A DNA stretch of 64,000 bases from Sodiomyces alkalinus F11 (lineage: Eukaryota; Ascomycota; Sordariomycetes; Glomerellales; Plectosphaerellaceae): contig NW_021167091.1 in assembly GCF_003711515.1 (NCBI RefSeq), forward strand, positions 82,340 through 146,339, written 5' to 3'. Positions 14,411 through 62,939 of this stretch are shown in pieces. The notes under the pieces are model-generated. The model was given only the letters and a program-made list of their open reading frames with translations. It searched no databases and was not told the DNA's origin. The translations under genes and the position numbers were made by a program. Position 1 is the stretch's first letter, and the number at the start of each line of letters is the position of its first letter.

Positions 14411-14550
14411 TTTCGCACTTATAATACGCCTAAACTAGCGCCTGCGCGGTACAGGGCTATGGATAGGCGTATAGAGATTGAAAAGAGCTATCGATTAATA
14501 TAGGTTTCGAGTGGTTTAGGGTGTTTACGCGTAAAACGTAGGTCTCCCCA

Positions 14551-31690: not shown

Positions 31691-34600
31691 TTATTATTAT
31701 TAATCTTACTCCGCTATCCTACCTAATCTACAGAAGCCTTCCTAGGCTACGCGGTCCTTCTCTGGTGGCTATAGAGGGGAAAACCCGGGTAAAACCCGGG
31801 GAAAACCTTTATATACTTCTTTAGGTGGAGAGGTGCTGCTACGGGGCCGATATAGCCCGGGTTCTTCCCCGTTATATATCTAAATCTTACCTCTAGGCCA
31901 ATAGCTAACAGGAAGTAAAGTAGGCTAGTAGTTAGGTAAGTTAGTCTAAGCTAATCTCTATCGGTAGAGCGGGGGGCTAAGGGGCGCTACCGCGCTCCCG
32001 CTATACGGCGGCTACGGCTCTTTAGCCTTAGTCTCCCTGCGTCCTTTAAGGATTATGCCTTTTATGCCTTCTATTTAGTTAATAAAGAGAGTAAGGGGGG
32101 TAGGCGCCTTCTACCTCCCCTAGGTAGGTTCCTGCTATATCCGGCGGCAGGTAGGGGGGATAAGGCTCTACCCTGTTATAAGAATTAGATAGTTAATATT
32201 CCCGGAGGCCTTTATACCTTAATCCTCCCTCTTCCTCCTATAACGCTAACGATTTTCGTTATAGATTTCCTCCCGATCTATTCCCGCTTATAGTCCCGTA
32301 GGTTTATCGTTACCGCTTATATTAACTAATAAACCCCTCTAGGATTCTTATCGTTTTCCTATTATAGTTTTACTATAAGTGTCTCGCGGGTAGCGTCGTG
32401 GTAGCGTAGTGGTATAGGGTTAACTAGATAGTATAGTAACGATCTATATATATATATAAGTAATTAGTAGTAGCAGCTTAATATAAGTTCTCTTCGTAGC
32501 ATAGTAATACCTTTACGGTAGCGTGCTAATAGTCGTAGATATCTTCTCCTAATAATAACGCTAATACTAATAATAATCGTAACCGTTATAAAAAGGGCTT
32601 AATCCGTGTTATACTATATATAAACCCCGGGGGTATTAAGGCGGTGCCGTAGTGGCTAACTTAGGGTAGTTATATTCGTTATAGTAAGCGCTTAGGTATA
32701 TACCTAGACGATATAGAGGCCTGCTCTAATACTATAAGAACTAGTATAGCCTATTTTTAGTATACTAATAGCCGGTTTCTATATAAGGATATAAGTCGTA
32801 TTAGTGCCGCTATAGTGTCGCGGGTATACCGTAGTAGTGTATCCTAATCGTCGTAATAGGTCCCCTCCACTACTAAAAAATAGTAATAGCGTCTTATAGA
32901 TCTTTATCACGCCTATATAGCGGTAAAGACCGCTAGTAGTAACGGTATCGCTATTATAAGCGTCCCCTTTCGGTGCTATAGTAGTCCCCTGCTAATAAGG
33001 TTTAGACTAAGGAGCGCCTAAGGACAGCGTCCTAGTCTTTTAGCCGGGCCCTAAACCGAGCGTTACTTTCTGGCTATAGCCGCGGCGGTACCGTGTTAGC
33101 AGAGGTATAGGAGTTATCTCGCTAGATAAGGCGTTCAGAGGGTAAGATAGACCTAATTTTAGAATACTTTATAGCTAGCCTCCTTTCGGCCCCGTTATGG
33201 CCCCTAGCGGTAATGATTAGCTAACTAGTCCTTATAGGACCTTAAGTATATTAAGAGTGGTGTTAGCGTTACTAAGGGCGATAAAGATAATTATAATTAG
33301 TAGCGCCCTATTAATGCCGAGCTAATAACGCCGGGGTCCTGGCTTATAGGACCCCTATTAATAATCTACCGGTTCGCTATACCGTTCTATCCCCGCTCCG
33401 GTCTTACTTCGGTATTATCTTTATTTTCGTAGGCCTTTATAACTTTAAGGGTAAGGCGAAAGTCCTTAAGCCTTTTCCGTTATAGGAATTACTTAGCTAT
33501 CGGTCCGGCTTTAGTATTATAGTTTAGTATATCGTATAGATCTCCTTTAGTAGTGAGTAGTCTCCTTATAGCGCCGAAGAGCTCTTTACGCTTTTCCTCG
33601 GCTATATCCTAGTATTAGAGTACTATATACTCCGTTATTTTTACCCCCCCGTTACCGTAGGGGCACTTTATTATCGGAAATCCCGGCACCCTCGCTTTTA
33701 CTAAGAAGGCTTATAGGCCTAGCTTTTTTAATCTAATTTAGGTAAGTGCGGCACTTTATAGCTTTAGGAGTCCTTTATATTTCCGGAGGGAGTATTATAT
33801 TAGGGGGCAGCTCGGTACCGCTACGGTATAGGTATAGGGCCTTAGTGTCTCCGCCTAGGTTTAACCCTATTCCCTTATAAGGGCTTTCCTCGGGGCCTTG
33901 TTTCCGGCCTAGGTTATTAGGGCGTTAAGTTAGGTTATCCACGCGAGGGCCGTATGGGTCCTATAATACCGATTCGGTGCGGCTAAAGCTCTCGCTACGG
34001 CGTATACTCTAGCTAATATTTTATTTTCGGTTCTCTCCTTTTATATCCGGCGGACCTTCCGGGTACTTAGGCTAAAGAGGTATAGGTTAAGGGGGGGGAT
34101 AAAGGTCTTTTTTTCGAGGACCCTAACCGGCGTGGCTTTATAGGCTCCGGCTATTAACCGGAGACACCGGTTCTATACCGTTATAAGTGCCGTTACGGGG
34201 CCGTGTCGGGGGCCGGCCCCTATCTTATAGACGGTCAAGGCGTAATAGGCGATTACTAATCGTATTACTACGTGGTATAGTCTTTTTACGTCTATAAAGC
34301 TATACCCCTACGCTACCGCACTAAGCCTTAAAAGGGTATATATTTAGGTAGCTAATCGGCTTTTTACCTTTTTAGTGTTTTATTAGAAGTCGAGCTTCCT
34401 ATTAAGCTAAACGCCTAGGAGCCTTATCGCCTCCGCCGCCAGCACCGAAGTAGCGCTAAGGGGAAGGGGAGTAGGTAAGGGTTAGCGTGACTTCGTGAAA
34501 GGGATATAGATATACTTAGCTAGTTCGAATTATAGTCCGCTCGTTATCTCCTAGTTTAGGTATATCCGCTACACGGCGGCGAGGCGGTACCGCGTTTATA

Positions 34601-37600
34601 CCTTTATCCTGCTAAAGGCGATAATATTCGTGTTATTGGTAAAACCTACTACCGTTATTTTAGGGACCCTTTTTAGTTTTTCGTATAGAGTGGAGGTATA
34701 AAGGATAAGGAGGATAGGAGAGTCTAAGGAGCCTTACGGTACCCCCCCCTAAAGGTGCCGCGGGGGGGCCGTTTCGCTATTAAGTAGTAGCTAGGCTATA
34801 CAGTTTTATAGGAAGCTACTAATTAGGATAGTAAGCTACTAGGGGAAGCCTTTCCTTTTAAGTACCTTAAGGAGGCGAGAGTAAGGGATAGTATCGAATA
34901 CTCCTTTAATATTTAGTTAGAGTATTAAAGCGGTGCCGCCGTGGGCCTAACTCGCCTTTATAGCCTCCGTGACTCTTTATACTACCGTTTTTATGCTTCG
35001 CCCTATCCGGTTACTTATCTATCCCTCCGGGAGGAGCCGATACTCCTCTGCTAAGGTAGTAATCCGGTCGGCTAGTATCCCCTTAAGGACTTTACCTATT
35101 ATGCTAAGGAGTGATATTAGTCGCTAGCCTTTTATTATCCTATAATCGGCCGGCGGCCGGCCTTCCTTCTTAAGGACTACCACGGTAGCATAGCGGTACC
35201 TCTTCGGGTAATAGCTCGCTCTAAGGCACGCTATAAAGATAGCACTAAGCCTTTAGTATAAGGGGGGTCTATACGCTTTTAGGAGCCCTACTAAGAGTCT
35301 ATTAGGTCCTAGTACCGCTTAGGGTTTAGTTTTCCTAAAGCGCCCTTATATATCCGTTATAGTAATATCGTGGCGGATATCCTACCCCGGGGGAAATTCC
35401 GCGCCTAAGGGCTTAGGGGTAGTAAGGAGGGGGGTTAGGAAGAATTTCCGGTTAAGGACTTCGGCTTTCTCTATGTGTATAGTTACCGGGTTATCGCTAT
35501 TATCTTAGTATAGTAGTAGTACCGATAAGGGGTCCGGCGGAGCTCTTTTTTTAGTTTATACTTATTTCTATAGTCGCTAAAGGAGGCTATTATCCTTCCC
35601 GGTCGGGTAAAGTAGGTATCGCTAATATAGCCGCTTTACTACCGCCAGGGCCTTATCTCGGCACCTCTTCGCTTCCTAGAACTTATCCTATTAGTTCCGG
35701 GACTTCCTGGATATATACCTATAGTAGAGGCGCTTTACTTCCTGGGTAAGGGCGGTTAGCTCCGCGTTCCACTAAGGGGTGGATAGGCGTTTAGGTGTGC
35801 CCCCGCGGCAGCGCTACGCGGCCTTATCGGCTAGCGTTATAAGATGTTTATTAGGTTATTAAGTGCTAACTTAATATCTCCTAGTATTGTAAAGGGGCCG
35901 GTCTACTATAATTATATAGCGGCGAGCTAGGGGACCTATAAGGGGTCGAAGTCTTTCTAGACCTAACGAGGCCCGGCTAGGTCCCGCGGTAGTGTTATCG
36001 TGGTAAACGGCGTGGTATCCGTCTTTATAAGGATTCGGGCTATCTATAAGTAGTAGTCTAACCCGATAACGGTCTTATCTAGGCCGCTAAAATTATAGCG
36101 GAGCCCCTGCGTTACTTATATAAGGTTAATAGTGCTAGCACGCTAGCCCGGGCGGTACTATATAGTTATTCTAGGGGGGGTTACTAGGTCTAGGTTTTAC
36201 CAGGTTATAAAAGTAAGTAGGGTATCGGCTTAGGGGTAGTACCGCGGTGGCTAAGACTATAGGGGATAGTATAGGTTAAAGTTCTCTACGAGGACGTGTT
36301 AGCCCTATAGCGATATTATATCGACTATATCCTATAGGGGCGTGTTTTAGAGGATCCTGGCTAATTAGTAATTCTCTAAGTAGATTAATTAGATTATAAG
36401 GGTATTATCTCCGGTTCCGAATATAACCGCATAGGTATCGTGGTAGGCCCGCTATATCTACGTGTATAGCGGGTATTTCTTATAGATATATAGGAGGGTA
36501 TAGCCTCCTCCCTAGATTAGCCGGTATACCCCTTAGGAGGGGTAGACGGGGCTTTTCGTGAAATAGTTAAGGCCGGGTTCCTGTATTACTATTATATCGT
36601 ACTCGGCGCGGTACCGGAGTAATAGCTCCCGCCACGCCTAACTCCTCCCTATATTCTATAAAAAGATATAGATTTCTATTAATTAAAGGGGGGGGGGGGT
36701 TAAGACGACGTGCCCGGTATAACCGGGGTCTAGCTTTAGGGTTCCTACTACGGTGCCTTACCGGCCCCGCGGGGGACTATATAGGCGCTTATCGGGCTTA
36801 GTATTAGGGAGGCCTTTTATCCCCGAGTCCTTTTCGGGGGCTAACCCGTACCTCTACGGAAGGGGCGGTCCTAGTCTTAGGCGATAATAATCGGGGGGAA
36901 GATCTACGGTTGCCACGGGTATACCGTTTTAGGCTAGCGGGTGATATTAAAGTCCCTGGCTTAGTACTTATACGCTTCGCGGGTCTTCTTAGCCTTTTTC
37001 TTTAATAGCCGGTATAAATCGTTAAAGGTATTATAGTCTCCGGTATAGGCGGCGTAGTAGCGGGGGCGCTTAGCTACTATAGCTTTATAGTATCCAAGGC
37101 CCTATAAGTGCGCTAACTCGGGCTTAGCGTAGTAACGGTATACCCTCTCTGCTATAGGGTAGCTATTCGCCTAATAGCCGAAGTATAGGTATTTATAGCA
37201 CTTTAGGGGGCTAAGGTCCGGATTGTATAGCTTATAGATATAGCTACCCCCCTTAAAGAGGAGGGTATTCCGGATAAGGCTTATTACCCTTTCCGGCGAA
37301 GCCGATTCGACAAGGAGAAGCGTTACCCTACCGGTACCGCGGCGGGGTACCTATTATCGTGCTCGGATAATTTTTACCTTAGGGTTCGTGTCTTATAGAG
37401 ATACTAGTAAGTCTTCTTTAGATAGGGCGTTAAGGGCCTCCCTAGGGATAGCCTTAGCTAGCGTAGGATAGGTGCGTACGGCTAGGGTAGCTCCTTTACT
37501 AAAAGCCTTCTCGACCTATTATTCCTTATAGGTGGCCTATTACTATATCCCTTCGGTAAAGGTAAGGTAGATATCTCTGTTGAGTAGTTTCCGTGCCGTT

Positions 37601-38317
37601 ACGGTATCGTATCGGGTAATCGTGGTGTTTATAGCTTAAATAATTTCCTTCGGGGTCCTGGCTTTTAGGGGCTAGTCTTCGGGGAGAGTTCTTTAGCGGA
37701 TAATTAATTCCCGGTAATACTTACCGGGGATTATTTTAGGGGGGGCGGGGTCCCGCGGCGGTACGGCCGCGGGAGCCCGGGTTATAATATTAGCCTAGGT
37801 CTCTTTTATACCACTTATTCCTTTTCGGAGTTCCTCTCGGATAATATAATAGACGGTAGCGTATAGGTATACTAGCGGTATCACGCCGGCGTCCTTACGG
37901 GTACTATATATCGTGATTAATTCCTTTACTAGCTTTACGACTTATTCGATTATATTCCCGTTAGCTAGTACGGCCTAAATTTCTGCCTTAATCTTAGTTA
38001 CTCTCGGTTCCGGGGGGCGTGGTAATCCCTTTTCGGTTTTATATCGGTTCCGCGCTATATCCCGCTACGGGTAAGGGGGGGAATACTTATATTACGAAAA
38101 GTGGGTCTATTATAAATTCTGCGTGGTCGAGGTCGGGGCGATACAATCCCACGTTTCTTCCGGCTATACTATAGCGCTAGTATTATAGTGTTACTACGAT
38201 AGTATTCCGGGTGGGAGGCGGTTATTATAATCTCCGTCTTAGTGGTTTTATCGATTTTACTCCTATTACGCGCCCGTAGTTAATAGGCGTGCGTTGCAGA
38301 AATCTTTTTAAGATCCT
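31691..38317 (-). mobile_element. LINE2-b: full-length Tad-like LINE family 2 (6.63 kb)
   Basis: Minus-strand element flanked by GGATTAA at 31,684-31,690 and 38,318-38,324. This fits as a target duplication because the Copia-2 RNase H C-terminus continues across it. Its length (6,627 bp) is almost that of LINE2-c (6,621 bp). From right to left: 5' leader with CGCGCCCG, ORF1 (about 38,100-36,750) with zinc knuckles, ORF2 endonuclease (about 36,640-35,900), RT (about 35,500-34,500), RNase H-like region, 3' UTR and an (AAT)n-like tail at 31,691. The RT box near 34,620-34,640 reads G-F-T-N-N instead of F-A-D-D, and stops are frequent. Confidence 0.8.
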
Positions 38318-38372: not shown

Positions 38373-39850
38373 TAAATAATATGAAGGAGCCTTATCTACG
38401 GTTACCGAAAAAGAATAATAGTTCTTACTATTATTAGAATTAAAGCTATAAATAGCCGAGTACTTAGTCTTTACGACCGGGTTATTATTATTCCGTGACC
38501 GAATTTAGGTGCCCGGGTCTACTAAAGGGTTAACGTTATAAGTGAGGATTATCTAGTTAATTCACGATTTAGTAATCGGAGAATACCCTAAATATGAAAA
38601 TACTATTACCTTAATAGCGCGTCGCTTTTTTTAGCCGAGGATAAATAAGGATATCCGATAATTTATCCGGAACTATAACGTCTAGAGAAAGGGGTATATA
38701 TAGAGAAATACGAAATAAGGCCTTGTACGCCCCTTCCTAATACTAAAATAAATACGGAGCGACCTATTAATAGATTTCATAATAGACCTATTACTAGCCG
38801 GCGAGAAGAAGGCGCGTTACCTTTAGGTTATTATAGACCGTTTAACTAAGGCTATAATATTAAAAGCGATAAAGATAATAAAAGCCGAAGCTTACGCGGA
38901 ATAGTTTTTATACTATTATTTCCGGTTTCACGGAATACCTAGGTCGATTATTACTAACCGAGGCTTATACTGGATAAGTAGGTTTTAGAAGTATTTTTAC
39001 GAGCTTATACGGATATCGTGTAAGCTTAGCACAGTATACTACCTCTAGACTAATAGAGTAATAAAGCGTCTGAACTAAGAAGTATAAGCTTATTTATAAG
39101 CTTTTATCTATTACGCTTAGGATAACTAGCCCTAAATAACTATAAAAGCTCCGCGACGGGGTTTAGTCCTTTCTTCTTAGAATATAGTTACTATATTAAT
39201 CTGATTTAGATAACCGAGGAGCCCTTTTTAAAACCTAGAGTATTAGCGGCCTATAACTTACTACGACGCTTATAGAAAGCGACTAAGTTTATTTAGGCCG
39301 TGATTATATTAATATAGCTTAGAAATAAAGAGTCTACTAACTAATATTAGATACCGGCTAAGCGTTTTAAGGTTAATAACTTAGTCTAGCTATTATTAGC
39401 TAACTATTCGACTCCGCGACTATTATAAAAGCTTAACTAGCTTTATCGTAAATACCGAGTTATAAAGGTAATTTACCTATATATAGTTAAGCTTACTATA
39501 CTATCGTAGATTTACCCTTAATTCTACGTAGACTTATTACGTCGCGCGGGCGATAACCCCGTTCCGGGATAGGTAGTAAATAACCCTTAACTACCGCCTA
39601 TTCGAGAAATACCTGATAGTAAAGAATAGGAAGTTAAGGAAATCCTTTACGCGAGGATAAAGAGGCGAGGTAGGGGATTAAGACGTGAAGTACTAATACG
39701 ATAGGTAGGATACTATAAGCCTATATAGGAACCTCTAAAATTATTAGCGTAAACGCGGGTACTTAACGAATTTAAAGGGAAATTCGGCTTAGTATTAACG
39801 AATAATAGCTTATTAGATACCTTCGCGCTATTATAATATAGGAACCGATA
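38373..39850 (+). pseudogene. Gypsy-1 integrase with C-terminal chromodomain
   Basis: Decayed pol C-terminus. V-T-E-K-E (38,400) leads into the integrase zinc-binding region (R-I-N-K-D-I-R near 38,640). In the catalytic core the first Asp survives in I-I-D-R-L-T-K-A (about 38,825), the second is Asn (I-T-N-R-G, about 38,950), and the Glu is Lys (V-I-K-R-L-N, about 39,060). The linker G-I/S..Y-P-Q-F-Y-V-D-L-L-R-R lies near 39,515. A chromodomain follows at about 39,630-39,780 (E-V-K-E-I-L-Y-A-R ... V-G-Y-Y-K-P), placing it among fungal chromoviruses that target heterochromatin. It is inactive through stops and lost catalytic residues. Confidence 0.8.
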
Positions 39851-39934: not shown

Positions 39935-41400
39935 TTAATATAAGCCTAGATTAGTATCCTTAGCCTCGAAATTATTATCCTCGGGATTATCGACTTCCGT
40001 AAAAGTCTTACCCTTATCGCCCTATTATAGGTCGGAGTCTATCTCCTTAACCTTATTATTATTTTTATCGTTACTATTATCGGGGATTATAACCGCGCTA
40101 GCGATAGTTATACCCGTAAGCGTAAAAGCCCGCCTACGCTCTATATACTATTAGAGTTAGGAAATTATAACGTTAGAGCGATCGAGTACGAGTATCTCCC
40201 TAAATAGCTAAGTATACTCCTTTAACTCTATAAGACTAAGGCATTGAAAGTCTTTATCCGATAATATCGACCCTAATAAGGGAGTAGGAGTAATAGGATA
40301 GGTGTTTTTTTCCGCTACGATATTAGGAGGGACTAGGCCCGAAACTACTACCTTACCTATAACCTTATAAGGAGGAGATAAGGCTAGCTATTCCGCCTTA
40401 ATAATAACCTCCTCCGGAGGCGATATATTTAGTCCTAATACTATCTTTTTTATAACCTCTAAGGGAGGAGAAGAGACTAATATAACCACCTTATTAATAA
40501 CTCCGTTACCAGAGGAAATAAGGCTAGTTTAGCTACCTTATTAATAACCTTAGGAAAAGGTAATAAGGCTAATTACGGTACTACCGCTTTTTAGACCTCC
40601 TAAGGAGGAGAAAGGGCTGACGTGATTACCGTGCCGGGAGCCTCCGCGGGATATATAGCTATAGATAATATCGCCGTTATCGCTTCCCTAGCTATAAGGG
40701 TATTCTAGAATACCACGTAGGCGTTAAGATATAGTTCCTACTCTTAGTAGAAGAGTTAGCGATACTATCGCGACCTCTTAAGGGGAGGAATTCTTATAAG
40801 GGCGTTCTTATTATCGTCGCTAATAAGGGTAGCCGTCTTAAATAACCTCTACTGGTAGCCTTTAAGGTATACTAGGAGAGGAGTATACCGGTATATTTTC
40901 GTAGAGTATATATAGTATTTCTTCCCCCGATTAGTCTAGCTATAATAAAGGCGCTTATACTTCCTATTAGCGATATCGCGCGTATAAGGGAGGTATAGCT
41001 TAGTATAAACACTATTAGGAGGGTATTTAGGAGGCCGATTACCCGCCGATTTCTTTTTCTTAAGCGGCGGCGAGGGCGATAACGCGAACTATTATACGGT
41101 TAGTATCGCCTTAAAACGTAAAAGCGTTATACCTATATCGTTATTGGCGGTACGCTTACTATTATTATTGCCCCTATTATTGCCGGGGGCTAGCGTTATC
41201 TATAAAAACGATATAAGTTAGTAAAGGGTTCCTAATAAAAAGATTATAAGTAAAAGACGGTTTACCTTAAACGGGAAACTCTTAAACTAACCGAGTATCA
41301 CTATTATTATCTAAGGATAGGGGATATTAGAGGAATCGTCGCTATAAGGAAGAACGAGTACATACGGAACTGCTATTACTATTATTATTATTATTAAAGG
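39935..41400 (-). pseudogene. antisense ORF of Gypsy-1: NLS-like, Cys-cluster-like protein
   Basis: On the minus strand, between the end of pol and the 3' LTR, a frame of nearly 490 codons is interrupted almost only by TAA/TAG (former Gln). It aligns with the corresponding frame of Gypsy-2. A basic run L-K-K-K-K-S-A-G-N-R-P-P-K lies at about 41,025-41,065. It is followed by a G-K-K-Y-Y-I-Y-S-T-K-I-Y-R-Y motif that becomes C-x2-C-x6-C if Tyr is a RIP product of Cys. The C-terminal half has repeated S-P-P...V..E.A...L motifs. The protein is unknown to me; a DNA-binding or regulatory role is only a guess. Confidence 0.55.
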
Positions 41401-41483
41401 TAGGGAGGGGAATAAAGAAAAAAAGGGCCTATAAGGAAAATAGGACCGATATATCTACGGATAATATCTACGCGAGGGAGGCC

Positions 41484-41882
41484 TATATTACTATTTCGGG
41501 CGCGTGAATAAAGGTTAGTAGGCTACCTAAAATTTCTTTAGTATCGAGGTAAGGGCGAGGTAAGATAAAGGGACACGACTATTCCTTTATTACCACGATA
41601 TAAGGGGGAGCCGAACTATAACGGTAACGCGCGGTTATATAACCCCCGGAGGGAGAGGGGGGGGTAGTATTACGGGTTAACCCCGATATAGTGGATCCGG
41701 CTATACTCCGGATCTTCCTAACTACGCGCTTAGTTAACGGACCTATATCGCTAACTTATCGCTACCTTATAGCTAGCCTAGCGCTATAGACTTTTCTCCT
41801 TTTTCCTTCTTCCTTCCTTAGTTCTAGATAATCTATTATTACGACCTTACTTAATACCACGACCTATAACTAGTCGTTTACA
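41484..41882 (+). repeat. 3' LTR of Gypsy-1 (399 bp)
   Basis: Starts TATATTAC (TGTATTAC before RIP) after a purine-rich GAGGGAGG and ends CGTTTACA. The Gypsy-2 copy (51,206-51,604) has the same ends and the same 399-bp length in inverted orientation. It contains an ATAAA-type box near its start. The five bases after it (CGTAG) would be the target duplication, but the matching left flank is gone. Confidence 0.75.
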
Positions 41883-44800
41883 CGTAGTATAGGGTAGAGG
41901 TTAACCTGTTTAGCCTTAACAAAGCCTATAATAGTATAAAGGTCGTGATGCTTTTATACGATCTCTATACTCGGTAAGCTATTATAAGGTTACTACGTAA
42001 CTATAAATTAGCCTTACCTATATTAGTAAATTTCAAGTTCTTCCTTTAAAGATAGTACCACTATATAATTATAGTAATCCGCCTGGATAGAGAAAGATCC
42101 CTTTAGAAAGGCTTTAATAAATAGGCCGATAAGAGAGGGATTTTGCTTAAGAGGTCGTCGCTTTATATAGCGGTATAGAATCCGAAGGCAGAGCGCTATA
42201 GTGGCGTTATTTTTACTATCGCGAGGACCGTCGTAACGGCCTTAGGTATCTAATAGGACATATAGCTAGAATTAGTGGCTACTATAGTATATCTATATAA
42301 CCTTATCCCTTAAAAGGACCTCTAGTAGAAAACCCCGTAAGAGAAGATAAAGGATTAGAGTAATAAATAAGGGCTGAAGAAGATCCTGATAAAGCCTATC
42401 GTTAGCTACCTAAAGAGGTATAGTTATTGAGCCTATTCACTAACCGCTGACTACTAATAGAGTCGTAACCGTAATGCTAAGTTAGCCGAAAGAGTATATA
42501 TCGGGTATTTAATTGGCTACGAGAGCACTAATATACACCGGATTTAGGTTCTAAAATTAGGGAGGATCCTGCGTACGAGAGATATTACCTTTAATAAAAA
42601 ACTCTTATATAAAGATCGCGATATAGAACCGCCGGTTGCCAAAGAGGTCTTCGACCAATTAAACCTGCCGGTGGATTATTAACTCCACGATCCTCTTGCT
42701 ATTACTACTAACGTTACCGATCTTCTGCTTTAACTACTACTAGAGCAGAATACTATAAGAGAGGCTATAGCGGCGGCTGCTGCTACTGCTAGTGCTTCTA
42801 GGGGGGTGGATAGAGGTGTAGGTTTAATAACCACTACAGAATCTACAGAAGAATAATAATAGCAGGCAACTAATTAGGAGGCATAGGAGGCATATAGAAC
42901 AGGGTAAATAAGCCCTAAAACGCCTTCCACGCCTCCGGCGGTACCTGCTTTAATAACGCCTTCTATAATTACACCTATAATTATACTAATAGCACCTGTT
43001 TTCCCTCGTCTAATAACTATAAACGGCCCTCCTATACCACTAACCAGAACTACGGATCTGCCGCCTATTTGTAAACGATCTGACGATGTCGAAGATTAAT
43101 CTAACGCTAATACGGCCGTAACCGGCTAAGCCGTCGAAATAAGATTATTATCCCCTAACTAATCGGTTCTTAACGAGGAACTAACTCCTGCCACTACTAC
43201 CGCCGTTAACCCGGTATATACGGCTCCTACGACGGCTAAGTCTCCTTAAGCCTCTTCTTCTACTACTACTACTAACTAATCTTCCTCTTCTACTAGTAGA
43301 AGAAGCCGCCCTCCTATTATTCCGACGGCCGCTACCGATTAGCCTACTTATAGTAGGCGTTTAAGCGGCCGATATACCCCTCCTTCCTTTTATACCTTCT
43401 ATAATTACATCGAGATACCGAAGAAGCCGCTACTACGCCGCTATATACCCAAGGAACCTCTAAACTAGTCTTAAATACTAAAGAGTCCCTATAAATTAGA
43501 ATAGATTAAGGCCGCATTATAGGAGGTCGGCACGCTTAGGTTAATAGGCACCTTTAAACGGTAGGAATAGTCCTACTAGTACGGGTAAGGCTCGGGACTG
43601 TCTAAATTAGTTCTAAGGCTACTAGACCTTAAATGGGGTTTTAAGTATAAGGTCAATCCTATAGGCTACGTTAATAAGTTTAAGGCACGCCTTTGCATTT
43701 AAGGGGGTTAATAACTAAATAACTACCTTAACGCTTACGTCTTTACCCTCGCTAGAAGGACCTTTAGGTCCCTAATAGGTATTATAGCCCACTTTAATCT
43801 TAAGACTTAGTAACTTAACGCCGTTAATGTATTCACTAATACCCTGCTTAACGAGGAAATCTATATTAAGGACCCTCCTAGTTAGTAGTTACTTTAGTCG
43901 GCTACGGGCCTTAAAGCCCACGATTAGCTCGAGGACGTTTTAAAGTAATCCACTTATATCTCTAAATAACGTAGAGGGATTTAACGGCTACGCCGGGTAT
44001 TATATAGCCTACGGCGTTTCCTAAAGCTATAGCACTAATAGCTCTCTTCCGTACTAGGTAAGTGCAGTTTAAAGTAATTAACCGAAGACGATTACGTCTT
44101 TAAGAACAAGATCCTGATTACTTTCTTTTACGTTAACGATATTATCCTAATCTACTATAAAGAATATTAATCTGCTGCTAATAACCTAGTATAGTAGATA
44201 TAGAAGAGCTTCTAAATTGGGAATCTAGGACTACTTCAGTGGTTCTTTAGAATCCATGTAGGACGCGATCGTTAATAACGTTAACTATGGTTATCGCTTA
44301 ATAACTATATCACCGATAAGATAAAGGCGGTATAGGTGGATTATAGAGGTTATAGGGTTAAAAGGCCTTTTCCTTATCCTACTATTCTATAACCTGTAAA
44401 ATAATAAGTCTCCGAAGACTTAATCTATCTATATCTTTAGACGGTCGGTTCTATTAACTACGCCGCCTATTAGACCCGGCCTAATATCTTTAAAGCCGCT
44501 TCGAGGATTACCGAATTTAGCACTAAACCTTTAAAATAGTATTATAAAGCTACCGATAAGTGCCTAGAGTATCTCGGCTTAATAAGGACCCTATACCTTT
44601 ACTTCGGACCACGTAAAGACTACTAAAAGCCTATACTCTTTTATACCTTTAACGCCGCCTTCACGGACGATTATAAGACTAGGTATAGCTTATAAGGCTA
44701 TACGACCCTTCTTTTCGGGGGTCCTATAGACTAGAAGGCTAATAAGTAAATAAGCGTCGTGACCTCTAATACCGAAGCCGAGCTTATAGTATTTTCTACT

Positions 44801-45867: not shown

Positions 45868-47879
45868 ATGCCTCAGCTCGACTACGGAGCGTTCACAGGC
45901 TCAGCAGTTCATGCCAGCTTGTATCGTGTATCCGGGATCACCTTAGTATGAGAGCGCCATGGAGTAGCAAGTCCAATGAAAAGAGAAGGACCGAGGACAG
46001 ACAAGTAGCCACCTGTGGTCTCCCGGTATTATACTCAACCTGACATGCTCTGCAGGATATTGTCGTGTCCGTTCTGCAGGCTTCAGCAACGAGACGTGAG
46101 GCTCAGGGGTATCTCAAGAAATATGCCCCTCAAGCGCCGCAGAAAGAGACGCGCTCGGCTGGGAAGAACTCGTCCTCCCTGCCACCATTCGGCCCATATC
46201 CGTTACGATCCATACTGACCACCCCCACCAACGACATTATCCAACAAAGAGCCCAACCCCATCCCGTCCGTACTCTAGAAGAACCTCCCAATGTGGCTTT
46301 GGTTAAACTACGTCAGCTTGACGCCTTGGATGACGAGGCTCTAACTGGAATTGCGAAGACCCTATCATATCTACGCAAATTGGGCCTCCTCAGTATCATT
46401 GTTCTTCATCAAGAATTGGCCGCATCCAGGGATACGTACAGGCATCAAACCCACAGAATTCAAATAGCCATCGACCGTTTCGGGCCACCGGGTGCGAGGG
46501 TGCTCGACCAGATCTTCATGGGCAATCCGGCACGTTGCTCGAACTTCATGCCTTCGAGTCTTGTAGTCCGGTTCCCACATACGCTGATTCGTGCACTCGA
46601 CGACGATGCTCTGGTCATCATTCCTCCTATCGCCCTGACCCACGATATGAGTACAGCGGGTATTGTGGATCCGGATAATGTCATCGTGGCTCTCGTCAAA
46701 TATCTGTCGGGCTTGCAATTTGAAGACGCCGATGACGGTGTGTCCCACCCCAACGTTTCGATGTCACTGCCGCCTAGAATTGCATCCGTTGAGCGAATAA
46801 TCATTCTTGACCCGCTTGGGGGCATCCCTTTGGTACATTCCGAGTCTTCTCACCGGTTTATAAACTTGGAACAAGAATTCAAGCACATAATGGAAGAGCT
46901 CCGACATGAGGGTGCGGAGGAAGGGCGCGAGGCACACCTGATTGACGAGTCACGTCGTGTACACATCCGGAATCTGCAGCTGTCCCAAAACGTGCTCGCA
47001 ATACTCCCGGAAACGTCCGCGACAATTATCACGACGCCATCGACCGCTGCACTGAAAGCTATTGAACGAGTCCCTGCTGTCGCGACCCGCAACCGACTAA
47101 ACCCTCTAATACACAACCTCCTCACGGACAAGCCGGTTCTTTCACCGTCCCTACCACTGGAGCGTGTGCGGACTGATCAGGCAGGCAAGGTGCCCTACGA
47201 GAAAACGCATCTTACCACCGTCGTTAAACGCGGAATGCCACTCACAATTTATCCTGACCCTACCAACGGGCCATGGGTGCCCCCACGACCAGGAGAGGCC
47301 CGAATGAAACTTACAGATACATGTATAGACTTGGGGCGACTGCAATTTCTCATTGAAAACTCATTCGGTCGGAAACTCGAACTCCAACATTACCTCGACA
47401 GAGTCAACAATACTCTAGCCGGAGTCATAATCGCAGGAGAGTACGAAGGGGTTGCGATCCTGACGTGGGAGAAGCCATCTTGCCTCGAACCCGAGGCAGC
47501 GTACCAGAGTGGGCGACTGGTGCCATACCTCGATAAATTTGCGGTTCTTCAGAATCGCCAGGGCAGTGGAGGAGTGGCAGACGTTGTCTTCAACGCGATG
47601 GTCAGGAGCTGTTTTCCCGACGGCGTATGCTGGAGAAGCAGGAAGGACAATCCGGTCAATAAATGGTACTTTGAAAGGTCAATGGGCACGTATAAGCTGG
47701 GCGGAACAAATTGGCAAATATTCTGGACGACTCCTCATGTGCTGCTGGACAGCCTCACGCTACGAGACTATGAGGACGTTTGTCGACACGCTGAACCCTC
47801 CTGGGTAGATAACGGAACCCTAACTAGTTCTATAAGCCAGTGCCCAGACCGTACAGGAGTAATAGAGAAGTGCTTTTAA
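45868..47879 (+). CDS. ARG2: N-acetylglutamate synthase, mitochondrial (ARG2 type)
   Basis: Transfers acetyl from acetyl-CoA to glutamate (EC 2.3.1.1), the first step of arginine synthesis, in the mitochondrion. Exon 2 (46,056-47,879) is one open frame. It has the fungal NAGS architecture: N-terminal S-V-L-x-A-S-A-T-x-R-E-A, an amino-acid-kinase-like domain with L-D-P-L-G-G-I-P (about residue 272), N-P-L-I-H-N-L-L-T-D-K-P (about 372), and a C-terminal acetyltransferase domain with P-Y-L-D-K-F-A-V (about 515) and W-R-S-R-K-D-N-P-V-N-K-W-Y-F-E-R-S (about 551). The frame from 46,065 has no ATG before the conserved region and a TGA at 46,041, so I propose exon 1 at 45,868-45,945 (26 codons) joined by a 110-nt intron, giving 633 residues. 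That start is uncertain and exon 1 does not look strongly like a mitochondrial presequence. The last 20 residues look non-conserved and lie where RIP-like composition resumes. It may be the only copy or a diverged paralogue. Confidence 0.88.
45946..46055 (+). other. probable intron 1 of the NAGS gene
   Basis: Donor GTATGA at 45,946, branch-like CTGAC at 46,040-46,044 and acceptor TGCAG ending at 46,055, with 11 nt between branch A and the AG. Removing it joins the ATG frame from 45,868 in phase with the long conserved frame and eliminates the TGA at 46,041. A cDNA would be decisive. The alternative is that this is a broken copy with a nonsense codon near its start. Confidence 0.55.
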
Positions 47880-50414: not shown

Positions 50415-51205
50415 TAACCACGGGCGCGTAATAGGAGCAAAATCGATAAAACTACCGAGATAGAGATTATAACTACCGCCTCCCTCCCGGGATACTATTT
50501 TAGCGGCACCGTAATACCGACGCTACGGTATAGCCGGAAAAGACGTAGGATAGCGTTATTCCGACCTCGACTATATAGAATTTATAACGGACCTACTTCT
50601 CGTAATATAAGCGCCCCCCCCCCCCTTCGAGGCAGGATATAGCGCAGAACCGATATAAGACCGAAAGGGGGCCACCACGCCCCCTAGAACCGAGAGTAGC
50701 TAAGATTAAGGCAGAAATTTAGGCCCTACTAGCTAACGGGAATACGATTAAGTAGGTTATAGAGTTAGTGGAGGAACTAATTATAATACGTAGTACCTAT
50801 AATAACGCCGGTATACTACTACTAGTATACTTATACGTATTTATCCGCTATATTATCCGAGAGGAACTCCGAAAAGGAATAAGCGGTATAAAAAAGACCT
50901 AGGCTAATATTATAGCCTAAGCTCCTATAACGGTACCGCCGCGGGACCCCGCCCCCTTAAAATAATCCCCGCTAGGTATTACCGGAAACTAATGATCCGC
51001 TAAGGAACCCTCTCTAAAGACTAGCCCCTTAGAGTTAGGACCCTAAAGGAAATTATTCAAGCTATAAATACTATAATTACCGAATAAAACGCCGTAGCGG
51101 TACAAAAGCTGCCTAGCGGAGATATCTACGTTACCTTTACCAAAGGGGTATAGTAGTAGGCTACCTATAAGAACTAATAGCTTAAGAAGGCCTTTAGTAA
51201 AGGAG
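50415..51205 (+). mobile_element. LINE2-e: 5' fragment cut by Gypsy-2
   Basis: Starts at ACCACGGGCGCGTAAT and follows LINE2-d through the first part of ORF1, ending at AAAGGAG. The Gypsy-2 LTR starts at the next base (51,206). LINE2-d continues past the equivalent position (about 62,120), so Gypsy-2 inserted here. The rest of LINE2-e is not seen on the far side of Gypsy-2. Confidence 0.7.
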
Positions 51206-51604
51206 TATAAACGACTAGTTATAGGTCGTAGCACTTAGTAAGATTGTAATAATAGATTATCTAGAACTAAGGAAGGAAGAAGGAAAAGGAGAAAAGTCTA
51301 TAGCGTTAGGCTAGCTATAAGATGGCGATAACTAGGCGATATACGTCCGTTGAATAAGCGCGTAGTTAGGAAGATCCGGAGTATAGCCGGATCCTTTATA
51401 TCGGGGTTAACCCGTAATACTATCACCCCCCTCTCCCTCTAGGGGTTATATAACCGTGCATCCCCGTTATAGCTCGGCTCCTCTTTACGTCACGGTAATA
51501 AAGGAATAGTCGTGTCTCTTTATCTTACCTCGCGCTTACCTTAATATTAAAGAAATCTTAGATCGCCTACTAACCTTTATTTATATACCCGAAAAAGTAA
51601 TATA
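51206..51604 (-). repeat. 3' LTR of Gypsy-2 (399 bp)
   Basis: Inverted match of 41,484-41,882 over the full 399 bp. Plus-strand start is TATAAACG (TGTAAACG before RIP) and the end is GTAATATA, followed by the purine-rich region read in reverse. It abuts LINE2-e at AGGAG. Confidence 0.75.
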
Positions 51605-51689: not shown

Positions 51690-52525
51690 TTTAATAATAA
51701 TAATAATAGTAATAGCGGTTCCGTACGTATTCGTTCTTCCTTATAGCGACGACTCCTCTAACTTCTCCTATCTTTAGATAATATTAATAATACTCGGCTA
51801 GTTTAAGAGTTTCCCGTCTAAGGTAAGCTATCTCTTACTCGCGATTTCTGTATAAGGAACGCTCCGCTAACTTATATCGTTTCGTAAACAGCGCTAGCCC
51901 CCGGCAATAATAAGGGTAATAATAGTAGTAAGCGTGCCGCCGATAACGATATAGGTATAATACTCTTATACATTATAGCGATATTAACTATATAATAGGT
52001 CGGGTTATCGCCGCTACCTAAAAAGAAGAAATCGGCGGGTAATCGGCCTCCTAAGCACCCTTTGAGTGGTATTTATACTAAGCTATACCTTTTTTATATA
52101 TGTAATATCGCTAATACAAAGTATAAGTGCCTTTATCGTAGTTAGACTAATTAGGGGAAGAAATACTATATATACTCTATAAAGATATACTAGTATACTC
52201 CTCTTTTAGTATACCTTAAAGGCTATGCATAGAGATTATTTAAGATAGTTACCCGTATTAGCGATAATAATAAGAACGCCCCTATATAACCTCCTCCCCT
52301 TTTAAAGTTATAACTATATCGCTAACTCTTTTTCTAGGAGTAAAAACCGTATCTTAACGCCTATACGGCGTTTTAGGATACCCTTATAGCTACAGAAGCG
52401 ATAATAGCGATACTACTTATAGCTATATATCCCGTAAAGGCTCCCGATATAGTAATCGCGCTAGACCCTTCTCCTCCTTAAAAGGTCTAAGAAAAGGTAG
52501 CACCGTAGTTAGCCTTATTACTTTT
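51690..52525 (+). pseudogene. antisense ORF of Gypsy-2, first part (NLS and Cys cluster)
   Basis: Plus-strand frame, antisense to Gypsy-2 pol, with stops almost only TAA/TAG. It contains K-R-A-A-D-N-D (about 51,928), P-K-K-K-K-S-A-G-N-R-P-P-K (52,017-52,055), C-N-I-A-N-T-K-Y-K-C (about 52,101-52,130) and G-K-K-Y-Y-I-Y-S-I-K-I-Y (about 52,153-52,190). The last reads as C-x2-C-x6-C if Tyr replaced Cys. The frame then runs through S-P-P..K-V-x-E-K-V-A to F-P-K-V-S, where LINE2-c interrupts. It continues in the same frame at 59,161. The N-terminus is not fixed. Confidence 0.6.
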
Positions 52526-52539
52526 TCCTAAGGTTAGTA

Positions 52540-55500
52540 TTATTATTATTATTATCGATCTTACTCCGCTATCCTAACTAATCTATAGGAGCCTTTCTAG
52601 GCTATACGGTCCTTCTTAGGTAGCTATAGGGGGGAAAACCCGGGTAAAACCCGGGGAAAACCCCTATAACACTTCCTTAGGTGGAGTAGTACCGCTATAG
52701 GGCCGATATAGCCCTGGTTCGTCTCTACTATATATCTGGATCACACCTTTAGGCTAATAGCTAACGGGAAGTATAGTAGGCTAGTAGTTAAGTAGGTTAG
52801 CCTAAGCTAATCGTTAATAGCGGAGTAGGAGCTAAGGGGGTACCGCCACGCCTCCGCGGTACGGAGGCCACGGCCCTTTAGCCTTAGCCTCCCTACGTCC
52901 CCGGGGATTATGCCTTTTATTCCTTCTACTCGGTTAATAAAAAGAGTAAAGGAGGTAAACGCCTCCTACCTCCCCTAAATAGGTTCCTGCTATATCCGGC
53001 GGCAGGTAGGGGGAATAAGGCCTTACCCTATTATAGGAATTAAATAGTTAATATCCCCTAAGACCTTTATACCTCAATCCTCCCTCTTCCTCTTATAACG
53101 CTAACGAGTTTATTATAGGTTTTTCCTAATCTATTCCCGCTAGTAGTCTTATAGGTGTATCGTTACGGCCTATACTAACTAGTATACCCCTTTAGTTTCC
53201 TTATTATATTCCTATCCTATTTTAACTATAGGTGCCTTATAGATAGCGTCGCGGTAGCGTAGTAGTATAGGGTTAACTAGGTAGTATAGTAGCGATTATA
53301 TATAAATAAGTAATCCGAGTAATAACGTAATATAAGTTCCCTTTATAGCGTAGCGGTGCCTCGGTAGCAGCATGCTAATAGTCGTAGATATTATCCCCTA
53401 ATAATAATAATACTAGTAGTAATAATCGCCGCTATAAGCGCGGTATAGTTTATATTATACCGTATATAGCCCTCGGTAGCGTTAGAGTAGTATCGTAGCG
53501 CTAATATAGGGTAGTTAGATTCGTTATAGTAAGTATCTAGGCACTTACCCCGACGATATAAAGCCTACGCTAATACCACGGGAATAAGCATAGCCTATTA
53601 CTAGTGTACTAATAATCGCTATCCGTGTAAGGATATAAGTCGCCTAAGTGCCGTGGTGGTATTATATAGGCGTTAAGGTGGATATAGCTAATAGTTTAAT
53701 AAGTCCCCCCCGCTACTAAAAAGTAGTAGTAATATCTTATAGATATCTACTAAACGTACGTAGCGGTAAAGGCCGCTAATAGCGCGGGTATCGCTACTAT
53801 AAGTATTCCCCTTCGGTGCTATAGCGGTTCCACGCTAATAAGTTATAGGCTGAGGAGCGCCTAAGGACAGCGTCCCGGTCTTTTAGCCGGGCCCTAAACC
53901 GGGTATTACCTTCCGGTCACAGTCGCGGCGGCACTGTGTCGGTAGAGGTATAGGAATTATCTTATTAGATAAGGCGTTTAGAGGGTAAGATAGACCTTAT
54001 CCTAGAACACCTTATAAGTGGCTCCCCCCCGGTCCCGCTACGGCTCCTTAGCGGTATTAGCTAATTAGCCTAATAGGGTCTTAAGTATATTAAGAGTAGT
54101 ATTAATGCCTCCGAGGGAGGGAATAATAATAAGAGCTAATCGGTGTCGTGATAGTACTATATTAATACCGTTAGGGCCCCGGCTTATAAGGCCCCTATCC
54201 TAATACTTAATTAATTATCGTGCTACCTTATCCCCGATACGGTCCCCCTTCGGTATCGTGGGTGTTTTCGTCGGCCTTTATAACTTCGAGGGCGAGGCGG
54301 AAGTCCTTACGCCTTTTCCGTTATAGGAACTACCTTATAACTGCCCCGGCTTCCGTATCGTGGTCTAATATATCGTATAGATCCCCTCTAATCGTGAGTA
54401 GTCTCCCCACGGCACTAAAAAGCTCCCTACGCTCTTCCCCGGTTCTATCCTAGCACTAAAGCACTACGTGCTCCGCTATTTCTACCCCTCTATCGTTATA
54501 GGAGCACCGCGTTATTAAAAATCCCGGTACCCTCGCTTTTACTAAGAAGGCTCGTAGGCCTAGCTTTTCTATTCTAATTTAGGTAAGTACGGCGCTCTAT
54601 AGCTTTAGGAGTCTTTTATATTTCCGGAGGGAGCGTTATATTAGGGGGCGGCTTAATACCGTTACGGCGTAGGTATATAGCCTCTATACCTCTACCTAGG
54701 TTTAACCCTAGTCTCTTATAAGGGTTTTCGTCGGGGCCGCGTTTCCGGCCTAAGTCGTTAGGGCGTTAAGTTAGGCTATCCACGCGAGGGCCGCGTAGGT
54801 CCTATAATACCGATTCGGTGCCGCTAAGGCTCTCGCTATAGCGTATACTCCGGCTAATATCTTATCTTCGGTTCCCTCCTTATATATCCGGCGGATATTC
54901 TAGGTATTAGGGCTTATAAGGTATAGGTTAAGGGGGGGGATAAAGGTCTCTTTTTCGAGGACCCTAACCGGCGTAGCTTTATAGGCTCTAGATACTAATC
55001 GGAGGCACCGGTTCTATACCGTTATAAATACCGCTATAGGGCCTTACCGGGGGCCGGCCCCTATCTTATAGACGGTCAGAGCATAGTAGGTAATCACTAG
55101 TCGTATTACTACGAGGTATAGTCTTTTTACGTCCGCGAAGCTATACCCCTACGTTACCGCGCTAAGCCTTAAGAGGGCGTATATCTAGGTAGTTAGGCGG
55201 CTTTTTACCTTGTTAGTATTTTATCAAGAATCGAGCTTCCTATTAAGCTAAACGCCTAGGAACTTTATCGCCTCCGCTACCGGTATCGAAATAGTATTAA
55301 AGGGAAACAGGGTAAATAAGGGTTAGCGTGACTTTATAAAAGGGATGTAAACACACTTAGCTAGTTTAAACTATAGTCCGCTTATAGTCTCCTATTCTAG
55401 GTATATCCTCTACACGGCGGCGAGGCGGTACTATATCTATACCTCCGTCCTGCTAAAGGCGATAATATTTATATTATCGGTAAAACCTACTACTATTATT

Positions 55501-59160: not shown

Positions 59161-59790
59161 TCCTAAGGTTAGTAATAAAGTAACTAAACTAACCTTACTT
59201 CCTCCGGTAACGGAGGTCGCTAATAAGGTAATTACGCCGGTCTTTTCTCCTCCTCTAAGGGTCTTAGAAAAGATAGCGTTAGGACTAAACCCATCGCCTT
59301 CGGAGGAGGTTATTATTAGGGCGGCATAGCTAGCCTTATCTCCTCTTTACGAGGTTATAAGTAAGGTAATAGTTTCGGGCCTAATCCCTCTTAATTTTAT
59401 AATAAAAAAGAATGCCTATCCTACTACTCCCGCCCCCTTATCGGAGTTAACGTTATCGGGTAAAGACTTTAGGCGCCTTAGTCTTATAAAGTTAAGGGAG
59501 TATACTTAGTTATTTATAGAGATACTCGTACTTAGTTACGCTAATATTATAATCTCCGAACTCTAAGAATTCGCGGAGTATATGCGGGCTTTTACGCTTA
59601 TAGGTATAATTATCGCTAACACGGTTATAATTCCCGATAATAATGATAATAAAGACGATAATAAGGTTAAGGAGACGGACTCTAACTTATAGCGGGGCGA
59701 TAAAGGTAAGACTTTTACGGGAATCGATAATCCCGAGGATAGCGACTTTAAGGCTAAGGATATTAATCTAGGCTCATATTAAGTATAGCT
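59161..59790 (+). pseudogene. antisense ORF of Gypsy-2, second part
   Basis: Resumes the frame broken by LINE2-c. It starts at the duplicated site and reads S-N-K-V-T-K-L-T-L-L-P-P with only a handful of TAA/TAG stops over 200 codons. Segments include F-S-P-P-L-R-V-L-E-K (a repeat of the motif just before the insertion), a Leu/Ile-rich stretch and an acidic Asn/Asp/Lys-rich tail (D-N-N-D-N-K-D-D-N-K). It ends near 59,780, where the oppositely directed pol frame also ends, so the two frames converge. Confidence 0.55.
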
Positions 59791-61310: not shown

Positions 61311-61559
61311 TCCTGGGCTGCAGATTACAAATATAATAACCACGGGCGCGTAATAGGAGTAAAATCGATAAAACCACCGGGACGGAGATTATAACCACCG
61401 CCTCCCTCTCGGGATACTATCGTAGCGGCACCGTAATGCCGGCGCTACGGTGTAACCGGAGGAAACGTAGGATAGTGTTATCCCGACCGCGACGACGCAG
61501 AATTCGTAATAGACCCACTTTTCATAATACGAGCGTTTTCCCCCTCGCCCGTGGCGGGA

Positions 61560-62920: not shown

Positions 62921-62939
62921 CCCTCCCCCTTTTATTAAT

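What the first reader, a model, noticed from the sequence alone, without database searches (positions are those of the whole stretch)
39935..41400. Long antisense ORF with NLS-like and Cys-cluster-like motifs between pol and 3' LTR of a chromodomain Gypsy family
In Gypsy-1 (minus strand) and Gypsy-2 (plus strand, 51,690-52,525 plus 59,161-59,790) a frame of roughly 480 codons runs opposite to pol, broken almost only by TAA/TAG as RIP would produce from Gln codons. Both copies encode K-K-K-K-S-A-G-N-R-P-P-K followed by a motif compatible with C-x2-C-x6-C, and repeated S-P-P..V..E modules downstream. Conservation of a frame in two diverged copies suggests the ancestral element carried a convergent accessory gene, perhaps a nuclear DNA-binding factor. 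I do not know a described fungal Gypsy with this arrangement.
Basis: partly seen in the sequence, partly recalled or inferred. Interest (0 to 1): 0.75.

Follow-up and report, generated by a model that had tools for sequence, protein, structure and literature searches.

The report
Spliced antisense gene in fungal retrotransposon
A decayed family of fungal jumping genes carries, on the strand opposite to its main genes, an extra gene whose intron signals and relatives indicate that it was once a real protein gene; accessory genes in this place are already known from another fungus and from plants, but this intron-containing one looks new.

Summary
In a ~7.2 kb Ty3/Gypsy family (37 of 40 scored genomic matches cover nearly all of the queried 1984 nt), the region between the integrase/chromodomain end of pol and the 3' LTR carries a gene on the opposite strand. 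Stop counts do not prove this: a sense frame in line with pol is equally open, because TpA is palindromic. Intron signals decide the strand. Over 3.1 kb in 30 copies, the only full intron-like motifs shared by 10 or more copies are two on the antisense strand, and both frame-breaking indels shared by several copies fall inside them. A second, diverged family in the same genome has a homologous antisense exon (profile E 4.5e-7; next of 36 frame pairs 0.0012), an intron at the corresponding place, and a last exon whose short indels are all multiples of three. The protein has a basic NLS-like run, a Cys cluster (clear in the second family only) and C-terminal halves not shared between families; Zn2Cys6 is not supported. 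Antisense accessory genes at this place are known from Botrytis Boty (brtn) and plant Grande and Retand. No transcript or intact copy was seen; function is inferred.

The parts
41366..41600 (-). Exon 1 of the antisense gene in Gypsy-1 (start codon not identified; upper limit approximate)
   Evidence: Reading frame upstream of intron 1 that ends in a run of Asn codons. Start and extent are inference.
41311..41365 (-). Intron 1, 55 nt here (GTATGT ... CTAAT ... TTAG); the less secure of the two
   Evidence: Full motif in 14 of 30 copies; 1-nt deletion shared by 8 of 30 copies lies inside it.
40798..41310 (-). Exon 2: KKKK basic run and the stretch aligned to the family B Cys cluster
   Evidence: Homologous to the family B antisense exon, hhalign Prob 92.6, E 4.5e-7, 88 columns; single-sequence search with the family B exon reaches a family A copy at E 9e-4, 36% identity. 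The part above about 41160 has no such support.
40744..40797 (-). Intron 2, 54 nt here (54 or 55 in other copies); donor without GT in all 30 copies, as RIP would do
   Evidence: Motif in 26 of 30 copies; 4C/5C length polymorphism, 15 and 15 of 30 copies; counterpart in family B of 53, 54 or 55 nt.
39936..40743 (-). Exon 3: SPP..V modules, acidic C-terminus (true stop uncertain)
   Evidence: Reading frame kept in 10 single-frame copies.
38542..38673 (+). pol: integrase zinc-binding domain
   Evidence: PF17921 E 2.2e-5, 24.9 bits against a cut-off of 25.5; 27.3 bits in another copy; RIPed integrase profile hits Ty3 Gag-Pol in PDB E 4.2e-17.
39650..39820 (+). pol: chromodomain-like C-terminus (approximate limits)
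   Evidence: Read by eye; tblastn of fungal protein P0004, whose C-terminus I read by eye as a chromodomain, matches 12 of 12 fetched pol loci at 32-38%. Pfam chromodomain not detected.
41648..41664 (+). Polypurine tract next to the 3' LTR
   Evidence: Purine run directly before the LTR.
41668..41883 (+). 3' LTR of Gypsy-1, about 215 bp
   Evidence: Two LTR copies in one orientation flank IN plus antisense region in 10 of 10 fetched 9.9-kb stretches, one with a partial 5' LTR; homology ends sharply at 41883 in 30 copies.
51723..51777 (+). Gypsy-2, intron 1, 55 nt, branch CTAAC kept
   Evidence: Read directly.
51778..52283 (+). Gypsy-2, exon 2
52284..52337 (+). Gypsy-2, intron 2, 54 nt (GCTAACTCTTTTTCTAG end; donor altered)
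   Evidence: Read directly.
52338..52541 (+). Gypsy-2, first part of exon 3, cut by an inserted RT-bearing repeat (52545 to about 59150)
59161..59790 (+). Gypsy-2, rest of exon 3
51205..51422 (-). 3' LTR of Gypsy-2
   Evidence: 91% match to the Gypsy-1 LTR.

Best explanation
It is an accessory gene of a Ty3/Gypsy chromovirus-type element, transcribed from the strand opposite to gag-pol, convergent with pol, and spliced (two introns mapped in family A). Because its introns lie on the antisense strand they are not removed from the sense genomic RNA and so survive reverse transcription (inference). The protein has a Lys/Arg NLS-like run, a module that is a Cys cluster in family B and its homologue in A, and a C-terminal half that differs in sequence between families (SPP modules plus acidic tail in A; Pro/Ala linker, coiled coil and acidic tail in B). 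Most likely mechanism: a nuclear, self-associating, nucleic-acid-binding factor that controls the element's own transcription or cDNA handling, as proposed for plant Grande and Retand antisense proteins. Shown: location, intron signals conserved on one strand, homology between two families, frame maintenance. Inferred: transcription, actual splicing, nuclear location, zinc binding, function (about 0.35 for the regulatory role).
For: Place: between IN/chromodomain and PPT/3' LTR in 10 of 10 fetched elements (10 of the 37 full-length matches); in the one family B copy extended, the antisense region is followed by a purine run and an LTR-like sequence. Introns: both-strand scan of 3.07 kb in 30 copies, full donor-branch-acceptor motifs shared by 10 or more copies only at 40744 (26 of 30) and 41311 (14 of 30), antisense; none on the sense strand. 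Between 41400 and 39935 both frame-breaking indels shared by 2 or more copies lie in introns; one shared 3-nt insertion lies in exon 1. Family B intron 2 is 54, 55 or 53 nt, and the frames of the flanking exons shift to match in the 8 copies that have it (my reading). Exon 3 of B: 8 of 8 distinct indels of up to 40 nt are multiples of 3 (one runs over the end of the stretch); intron 2: 0 of 3. A-B exon homology E 4.5e-7, next best of 36 frame pairs 0.0012. Transversions between B subfamilies in the Cys exon fall 4, 1, 14 on codon positions 1, 2, 3 (6 copies). Pol-trained strand score favours antisense in 10 of 10 copies under 3 models. Coiled coil in B: best PDB match is a designed coiled coil, whole-sequence E 1.8e-7.
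Against: All copies read are RIPed; no intact copy, transcript or protein was seen. The intron pattern was written after I had seen the two sites; with a looser pattern (branch plus acceptor only) one sense site, 38863, also appears in 12 of 30 copies beside 40744 in 25 of 30. No homologue of the antisense protein was scored in the protein database (386 candidates, the best 7998), although the equally RIPed integrase profile found 4. The C-terminal exons of A and B show no similarity. In family B exon 3 the transversion counts [32,15,29] do not favour position 3 over position 1, and exon 2 has [2,1,1]. Family B exon 1 has 10 frame-breaking indels among 17 (5 of them only in L052). Around 41360-41220 the codon model scores the antisense frames negative and a sense frame mostly slightly positive, so exon 1, intron 1 and the start of exon 2 are the weakest part. 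The intron 2 donor of family A keeps GT in 0 of 30 copies. Structure prediction failed, pLDDT 27. Third-position excess cannot by itself tell the antisense frame from the sense frame whose third positions face it.
Confidence: 0.8

Rival explanations
1. The region is a long in-frame C-terminal extension of pol (or a sense accessory frame), and the antisense frame is its shadow.
For: The pol frame continues through the region with 16-20 stops in about 429 codons, as few as the antisense frame.
Against: TpA is palindromic, so both counts come from the same depletion. No full intron-like motif is shared by 10 or more copies on the sense strand. The best sense-sense profile match between families is 0.0012 against 4.5e-7 for antisense. 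Half of the copies differ by 1 nt at 40786, which would break a sense frame but not a spliced antisense one.
Confidence: 0.05
2. Non-coding: a RIP-shaped region with chance frames; the antisense transcript, if any, acts as RNA (dsRNA or siRNA source).
For: No protein homologue found; within-family transversions show no third-position excess (13, 5, 5); an undoubted coding frame, integrase, is not poor in stops, so few stops say little. Antisense RNA regulation is suggested for such elements in PMC7264820 (passages).
Against: Protein-level homology between families, in-frame exon 3 indels and matched intron lengths.
Confidence: 0.08
3. A host gene fragment captured by the element, or a remnant of another transposon nested once and amplified.
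For: It has introns, as host genes do; the C-terminal halves of A and B are unrelated.
Against: Present in two diverged families at the same place. Of 131 matching pieces to the family B exon in the genome, 130 contain stops; the one without is 26 residues, so no host paralogue of this exon was seen in this genome. A capture in the common ancestor of the families stays possible.
Confidence: 0.15

Closest known systems
Boty / BcGypsy1 of Botrytis cinerea with antisense gene brtn (Zhao et al. 2011, cited in PMC7264820, PMC8365987, PMC4227169)
   Same: Fungal Gypsy with chromodomain; extra gene antisense to gag-pol between pol and 3' LTR (passages).
Plant Grande gene23, RIRE2, Retand (TRP28, PF04195), PvRetro13
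   Same: Antisense accessory ORF between pol and 3' LTR; nuclear protein for Grande; DNA binding predicted for TRP28 (passages).
   Different: Plant elements, Retand a non-chromovirus lineage; no TRP28 match in Pfam for our proteins.
Ty3/Gypsy chromoviruses of fungi
   Same: RNase H and integrase domains; IN profile hits Ty3 Gag-Pol.
   Different: As recalled, the standard members lack this gene.
Retroviral antisense genes (HTLV-1 HBZ)
   Same: Antisense gene of a retrovirus, nuclear protein (passage in PMC11963269).
   Different: An analogy of arrangement only; no sequence relation tested.

Membership tests
Ty3/Gypsy LTR retrotransposon | Direct LTRs flanking the element | tested here: met
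   10 of 10 fetched stretches, one with a partial 5' LTR
Ty3/Gypsy LTR retrotransposon | RT-RNase H-integrase of Ty3 type | tested here: met
   PF17917 1.7e-7, PF17921; rve in 3 of 10 members, best 0.0028; Ty3 Gag-Pol 4.2e-17. RT itself not matched in the copy scanned.
Chromovirus | Chromodomain at the integrase C-terminus | tested here: inconclusive
   Not found by Pfam in 10 members at E 0.1; recognised by eye and by similarity to P0004
Antisense accessory ORF between pol and 3' LTR (aORF-3R) | Position between pol and 3' LTR, opposite strand, in most copies of the family | tested here: met
Antisense accessory ORF (aORF-3R) | Antisense transcript | not testable with these tools
   No RNA data
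Boty brtn family | Sequence homology to BRTN | not testable with these tools
   brtn sequence not held; original paper not held
Zn2Cys6 binuclear cluster (PF00172) | Pfam match | tested here: not met
   0 of 10, 0 of 8, 0 of 9 members
Zn2Cys6 binuclear cluster (PF00172) | Six Cys, C-x2-C-x6-C twice (motif recalled) | tested here: not met
   Family B shows Cys at columns 95, 98, 105 (one C-x2-C-x6-C, seen in 1, 2 and 2 copies) plus 67, 72, 80, 100 in other spacings. In family A the matching columns hold Tyr with 1-2 Cys and 1 His each, or Tyr only; Cys and His together fit an Arg origin as well
Retand TRP28 protein (PF04195) | PF04195 match | tested here: not met
   No Pfam match in A1 or A7, none of this family in A6

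The most novel reading that the evidence does not exclude
A lineage of fungal chromoviruses has long carried an intron-containing antisense regulator. Since only RNA made from the antisense strand of integrated DNA can be spliced, the protein can be made only from integrated, transcribed copies, giving the element a copy-number sensor that its packaged sense RNA cannot encode. A shared module with a family-specific C-terminal half would let each family recognise its own particle or promoter.
Probability: 0.15. Interest if true: 0.8.

Novelty: new variant of a known kind. Interest (0 to 1): 0.5.

Why it matters
Antisense accessory genes are best described in plants, with one fungal case found here (Boty) and no known function. 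Two diverged families in one fungal genome sharing such a gene, with introns, make it look like a lineage trait rather than an oddity. The introns give a direct RNA test of whether it is expressed, and they offer a way to find the coding strand in fully RIPed DNA, where open frames mislead.

Tried and rejected
Stop counts as proof of strand: rejected, since the sense frame is equally open and the integrase control is not poor in stops. Classing stop columns as RIP-derived or ancestral: no use, because RIP is saturated at many columns. Codon-position transversion test within family A: no power, 13/5/5 shared columns, p 0.06 and not at position 3. General codon-usage model from pol: weak. AlphaFold on 10 RIPed copies: mean pLDDT 27, no fold search made. 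Protein search of the antisense frame: nothing, with the integrase as working control. PDB match to importin alpha, E 0.09, and to dynein intermediate chain, E 0.64, and four Pfam families at E 0.06-0.1 for family B exon 3, taken as noise. The first family B exon alignment (A3) had two members in a wrong frame; it was replaced by A7 and not used. Comparing C-terminal exons of A and B: nothing. The regular expression for intron 1 length was imprecise and is not used. My first reading of Cys at codons 214 and 217 of family A was withdrawn on checking.

Full report
What the window holds. The window is C13:82340-146339 of an unnamed 43.4-Mb fungal assembly. Most of it carries strong RIP marks (TpA/ApT mostly 1.5-2.2, (CpA+TpG)/(ApC+GpT) mostly 0.14-0.5), except an island around 46-48 kb. 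Gypsy-1 runs on the plus strand: integrase zinc-binding domain at 38542-38673, an integrase core and a chromodomain-like end read by eye, the region in question, a polypurine tract at 41648-41664, and a 3' LTR ending at 41883. Gypsy-2 is the inverted copy, cut by a 6.6-kb RT-bearing repeat at 52545 to about 59150. In 10 of 10 stretches of 9.9 kb fetched from elsewhere in the genome (10 of the 37 full-length matches), two LTR copies of about 213 bp flank integrase plus the region, one of them with a partial 5' LTR; total length is about 7.2 kb in most and 7.4 kb in one with an extra LTR.

The DNA search with the region scored 40 of 296 candidates; 37 of the 40 match nearly the whole 1984-nt query at 85-100% identity, the window copy included. 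I aligned the 30 for which loci were returned. The frame has far fewer stops than shuffled sequence in 10 copies that stay in one frame. However, the pol frame carried on in the sense direction has equally few. The reason is geometric: TpA reads TpA on both strands, and in this region TpA is depleted at one codon phase (41 against 74 and 98 in L010), which spares both frames. And the control warns further: the integrase frame of the same elements has 31-35 stops in about 443 codons, no fewer than shuffles. A strand score trained on the integrase reading favours the antisense strand in 10 of 10 copies under three training sets (means 0.026, 0.056, 0.042; integrase itself, cross-validated, 0.059 and 0.053). 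The copies are not independent, so this is support, not proof.

Introns decide it. Between 41400 and 39935 two 1-nt length differences are shared by many copies: at window 41355 (8 of 30 short) and at 40786 (15 short, 15 long); all other frame-breaking indels there are in single copies, and the one other shared indel, a 3-nt insertion in 3 copies, keeps the frame. (Outside the gene, shared 1-nt differences lie in the LTR, 13 of 30, and at the purine run, 4 of 30.) Both sites sit inside sequences that look like fungal introns on the antisense strand: GTATGT..CTAAT..TTAG at 41365-41311, and TATAAG..GCTAAC..TTCTAG at 40797-40744, the last in the form most copies show. The second lacks GT in all 30 copies, as RIP at that context would cause; that is an inference. 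A scan of both strands over 3.07 kb in the 30 copies for donor-branch-acceptor motifs of 45-65 nt finds exactly two sites shared by 10 or more copies, these two (26 and 14 of 30), and none on the sense strand. The pattern was written after the sites had been seen and allows for RIP; with branch and acceptor alone, 40744 remains (25 of 30) and one sense site at 38863 appears in 12 of 30. With the introns removed, both length classes would give the same downstream frame. Intron 2 is the firmer one. Around intron 1 the codon model is negative for the antisense frames at 41360-41220, so exon 1, intron 1 and the start of exon 2 are less certain.

A second family agrees. A search with a fungal integrase (P0002) scored 129 pol matches in the genome (615 candidates). 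Twelve were fetched; nine (L041-L046, L049, L050, L052) belong to a related family B whose integrase DNA is 62-78% identical in short aligned pieces. Downstream of the chromodomain, family B also has an antisense gene: a KKRR-type run and Cys cluster, an intron of about 50 nt, a short exon, a second intron, then a Pro/Ala linker, a coiled coil and an acidic tail. By my reading, intron 2 is 54 nt in L041, L044 and L049, 55 in L043, L045, L050 and L052, and 53 in L042 (L046 lacks the region), and in each of the eight the frames of the flanking exons shift by just that amount. Exon 3 of family B has 8 distinct indels of at most 40 nt, all multiples of three (one runs over the end of the stretch; longer ones were not counted); intron 2 has 3, none a multiple of three. 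Exon 1 is less clean: 10 of its 17 events break the frame, 5 of these only in L052, whose sequence there is unrelated, others at positions where events partly compensate. In the one family B copy extended, a purine run and a sequence with partial likeness to the family A LTR follow the gene.

Homology and selection. The exon of family A with the KKKK run (10 copies) and the Cys exon of family B (8 copies) align over 88 columns with probability 92.6 and E 4.5e-7. Running all 36 pairs of reading frames, the next best pair (sense-sense) reaches 0.0012. A single-sequence search with the family B exon also reaches a family A copy at E 9e-4 with 36% identity. The C-terminal exons show no similarity. 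The intron 2 positions look equivalent in the two families; that is my reading. Between family B subfamilies (6 copies with all exons), transversions in the Cys exon fall 4, 1 and 14 on antisense codon positions 1, 2 and 3; in exon 2 they are 2, 1, 1 and in exon 3 they are 32, 15, 29, so only the Cys exon shows a clear third-position excess. Within family A the test has no power.

What the protein looks like. A run of four Lys in a Pro-rich stretch (NLS-like). In family B, Cys is seen beside Tyr, with no Arg or His, at columns 67, 72, 80, 95, 98 and 105, and in all 7 copies at 100; since RIP turns Cys codons into Tyr codons, these are taken as ancestral Cys. In family A only codon 188 (10 Cys, 20 Tyr) is that clear; codons 214 and 217 show Tyr with 1 or 2 Cys and 1 His, which fits an Arg origin as well as Cys. 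A full Zn2Cys6 domain is not supported: there is no such Pfam match and no second half. No Pfam family, PDB chain or protein-database homologue beyond weak, noise-level matches was found for the antisense protein, apart from the coiled-coil likeness of family B exon 3. The protein-database search was made for family A only; family B could not be searched (cap). The control search with the equally RIPed integrase found four proteins, one of them from Hirsutella minnesotensis, so the database can yield fungal relatives, but words lost to RIP may hide some.

How it probably works. Shown: a conserved gene structure with intron signals on the strand opposite to pol, kept in two families. Inferred: it is transcribed by a promoter of its own near the 3' LTR, spliced, and makes a nuclear protein that binds nucleic acid through the conserved module and associates through its C-terminal part; its introns survive transposition because the sense genomic RNA does not present them. 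A regulatory role on the element's own transcription or cDNA is the likeliest function, by analogy with Grande and Retand.

What is known. [quoted passage not shown] of PMC11963269; of PMC8365987; of PMC4227169). PMC2864245 mentions an additional ORF of unknown function in a figure of fungal and spikemoss elements (two passages). PMC3248453 has no 'antisense' in its main text (passages). My searches (listings only, apart from the passages named) turned up no report of a spliced antisense gene in a fungal Gypsy; most subscription papers are not in the library, among them Zhao et al. 2011, so brtn itself may be spliced. So I call this a new variant of a known kind.

Noticed in passing
window 31690-38291, 52545-59150, 61334-64000: A 6.6-kb RT-bearing repeat, probably a non-LTR element (RVT_1 on the - strand in the first), sits beside or inside the Gypsy copies; its presumed 5' end abuts the integrase region of both Gypsy-1 and Gypsy-2 within about 150 bp. 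Pieces of it lie next to 6 of 10 fetched Gypsy copies. Possible target preference.
   Followed up: partly
window 46044-47879: Intact ORF with an N-acetylglutamate synthase NAT domain (PF04768, E 4.2e-36), an un-RIPed island in otherwise RIPed DNA.
   Followed up: partly
window 9400-14550: Another repeat family, on the - strand, with endonuclease (PF14529) and reverse transcriptase (RVT_1) matches: a second, likely non-LTR, element.
   Followed up: no
L051, oriented 2840 onward: A subfamily 77% identical to family A in the integrase region, in which sequence resembling the low-coordinate end of the RT-bearing repeat replaces most of the antisense gene in the stretch seen (likeness read by eye); Gypsy-2 has the same kind of insertion in exon 3.
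   Followed up: no
P0003 (Hirsutella minnesotensis HIM_09975): A predicted protein listed with PF03101 (recalled as the FAR1 DNA-binding domain) together with integrase domains; a fusion or an annotation artefact.
   Followed up: no
G000:C6:78843-78956: A 38-residue match to the family B exon is reported inside an open frame of 5217 residues; unexplained.
   Followed up: no
L053:about 900-1601: Sequence of a family A copy lies directly behind the LTR of a family B copy (read by eye), which suggests nesting of one family beside or in the other.
   Followed up: no
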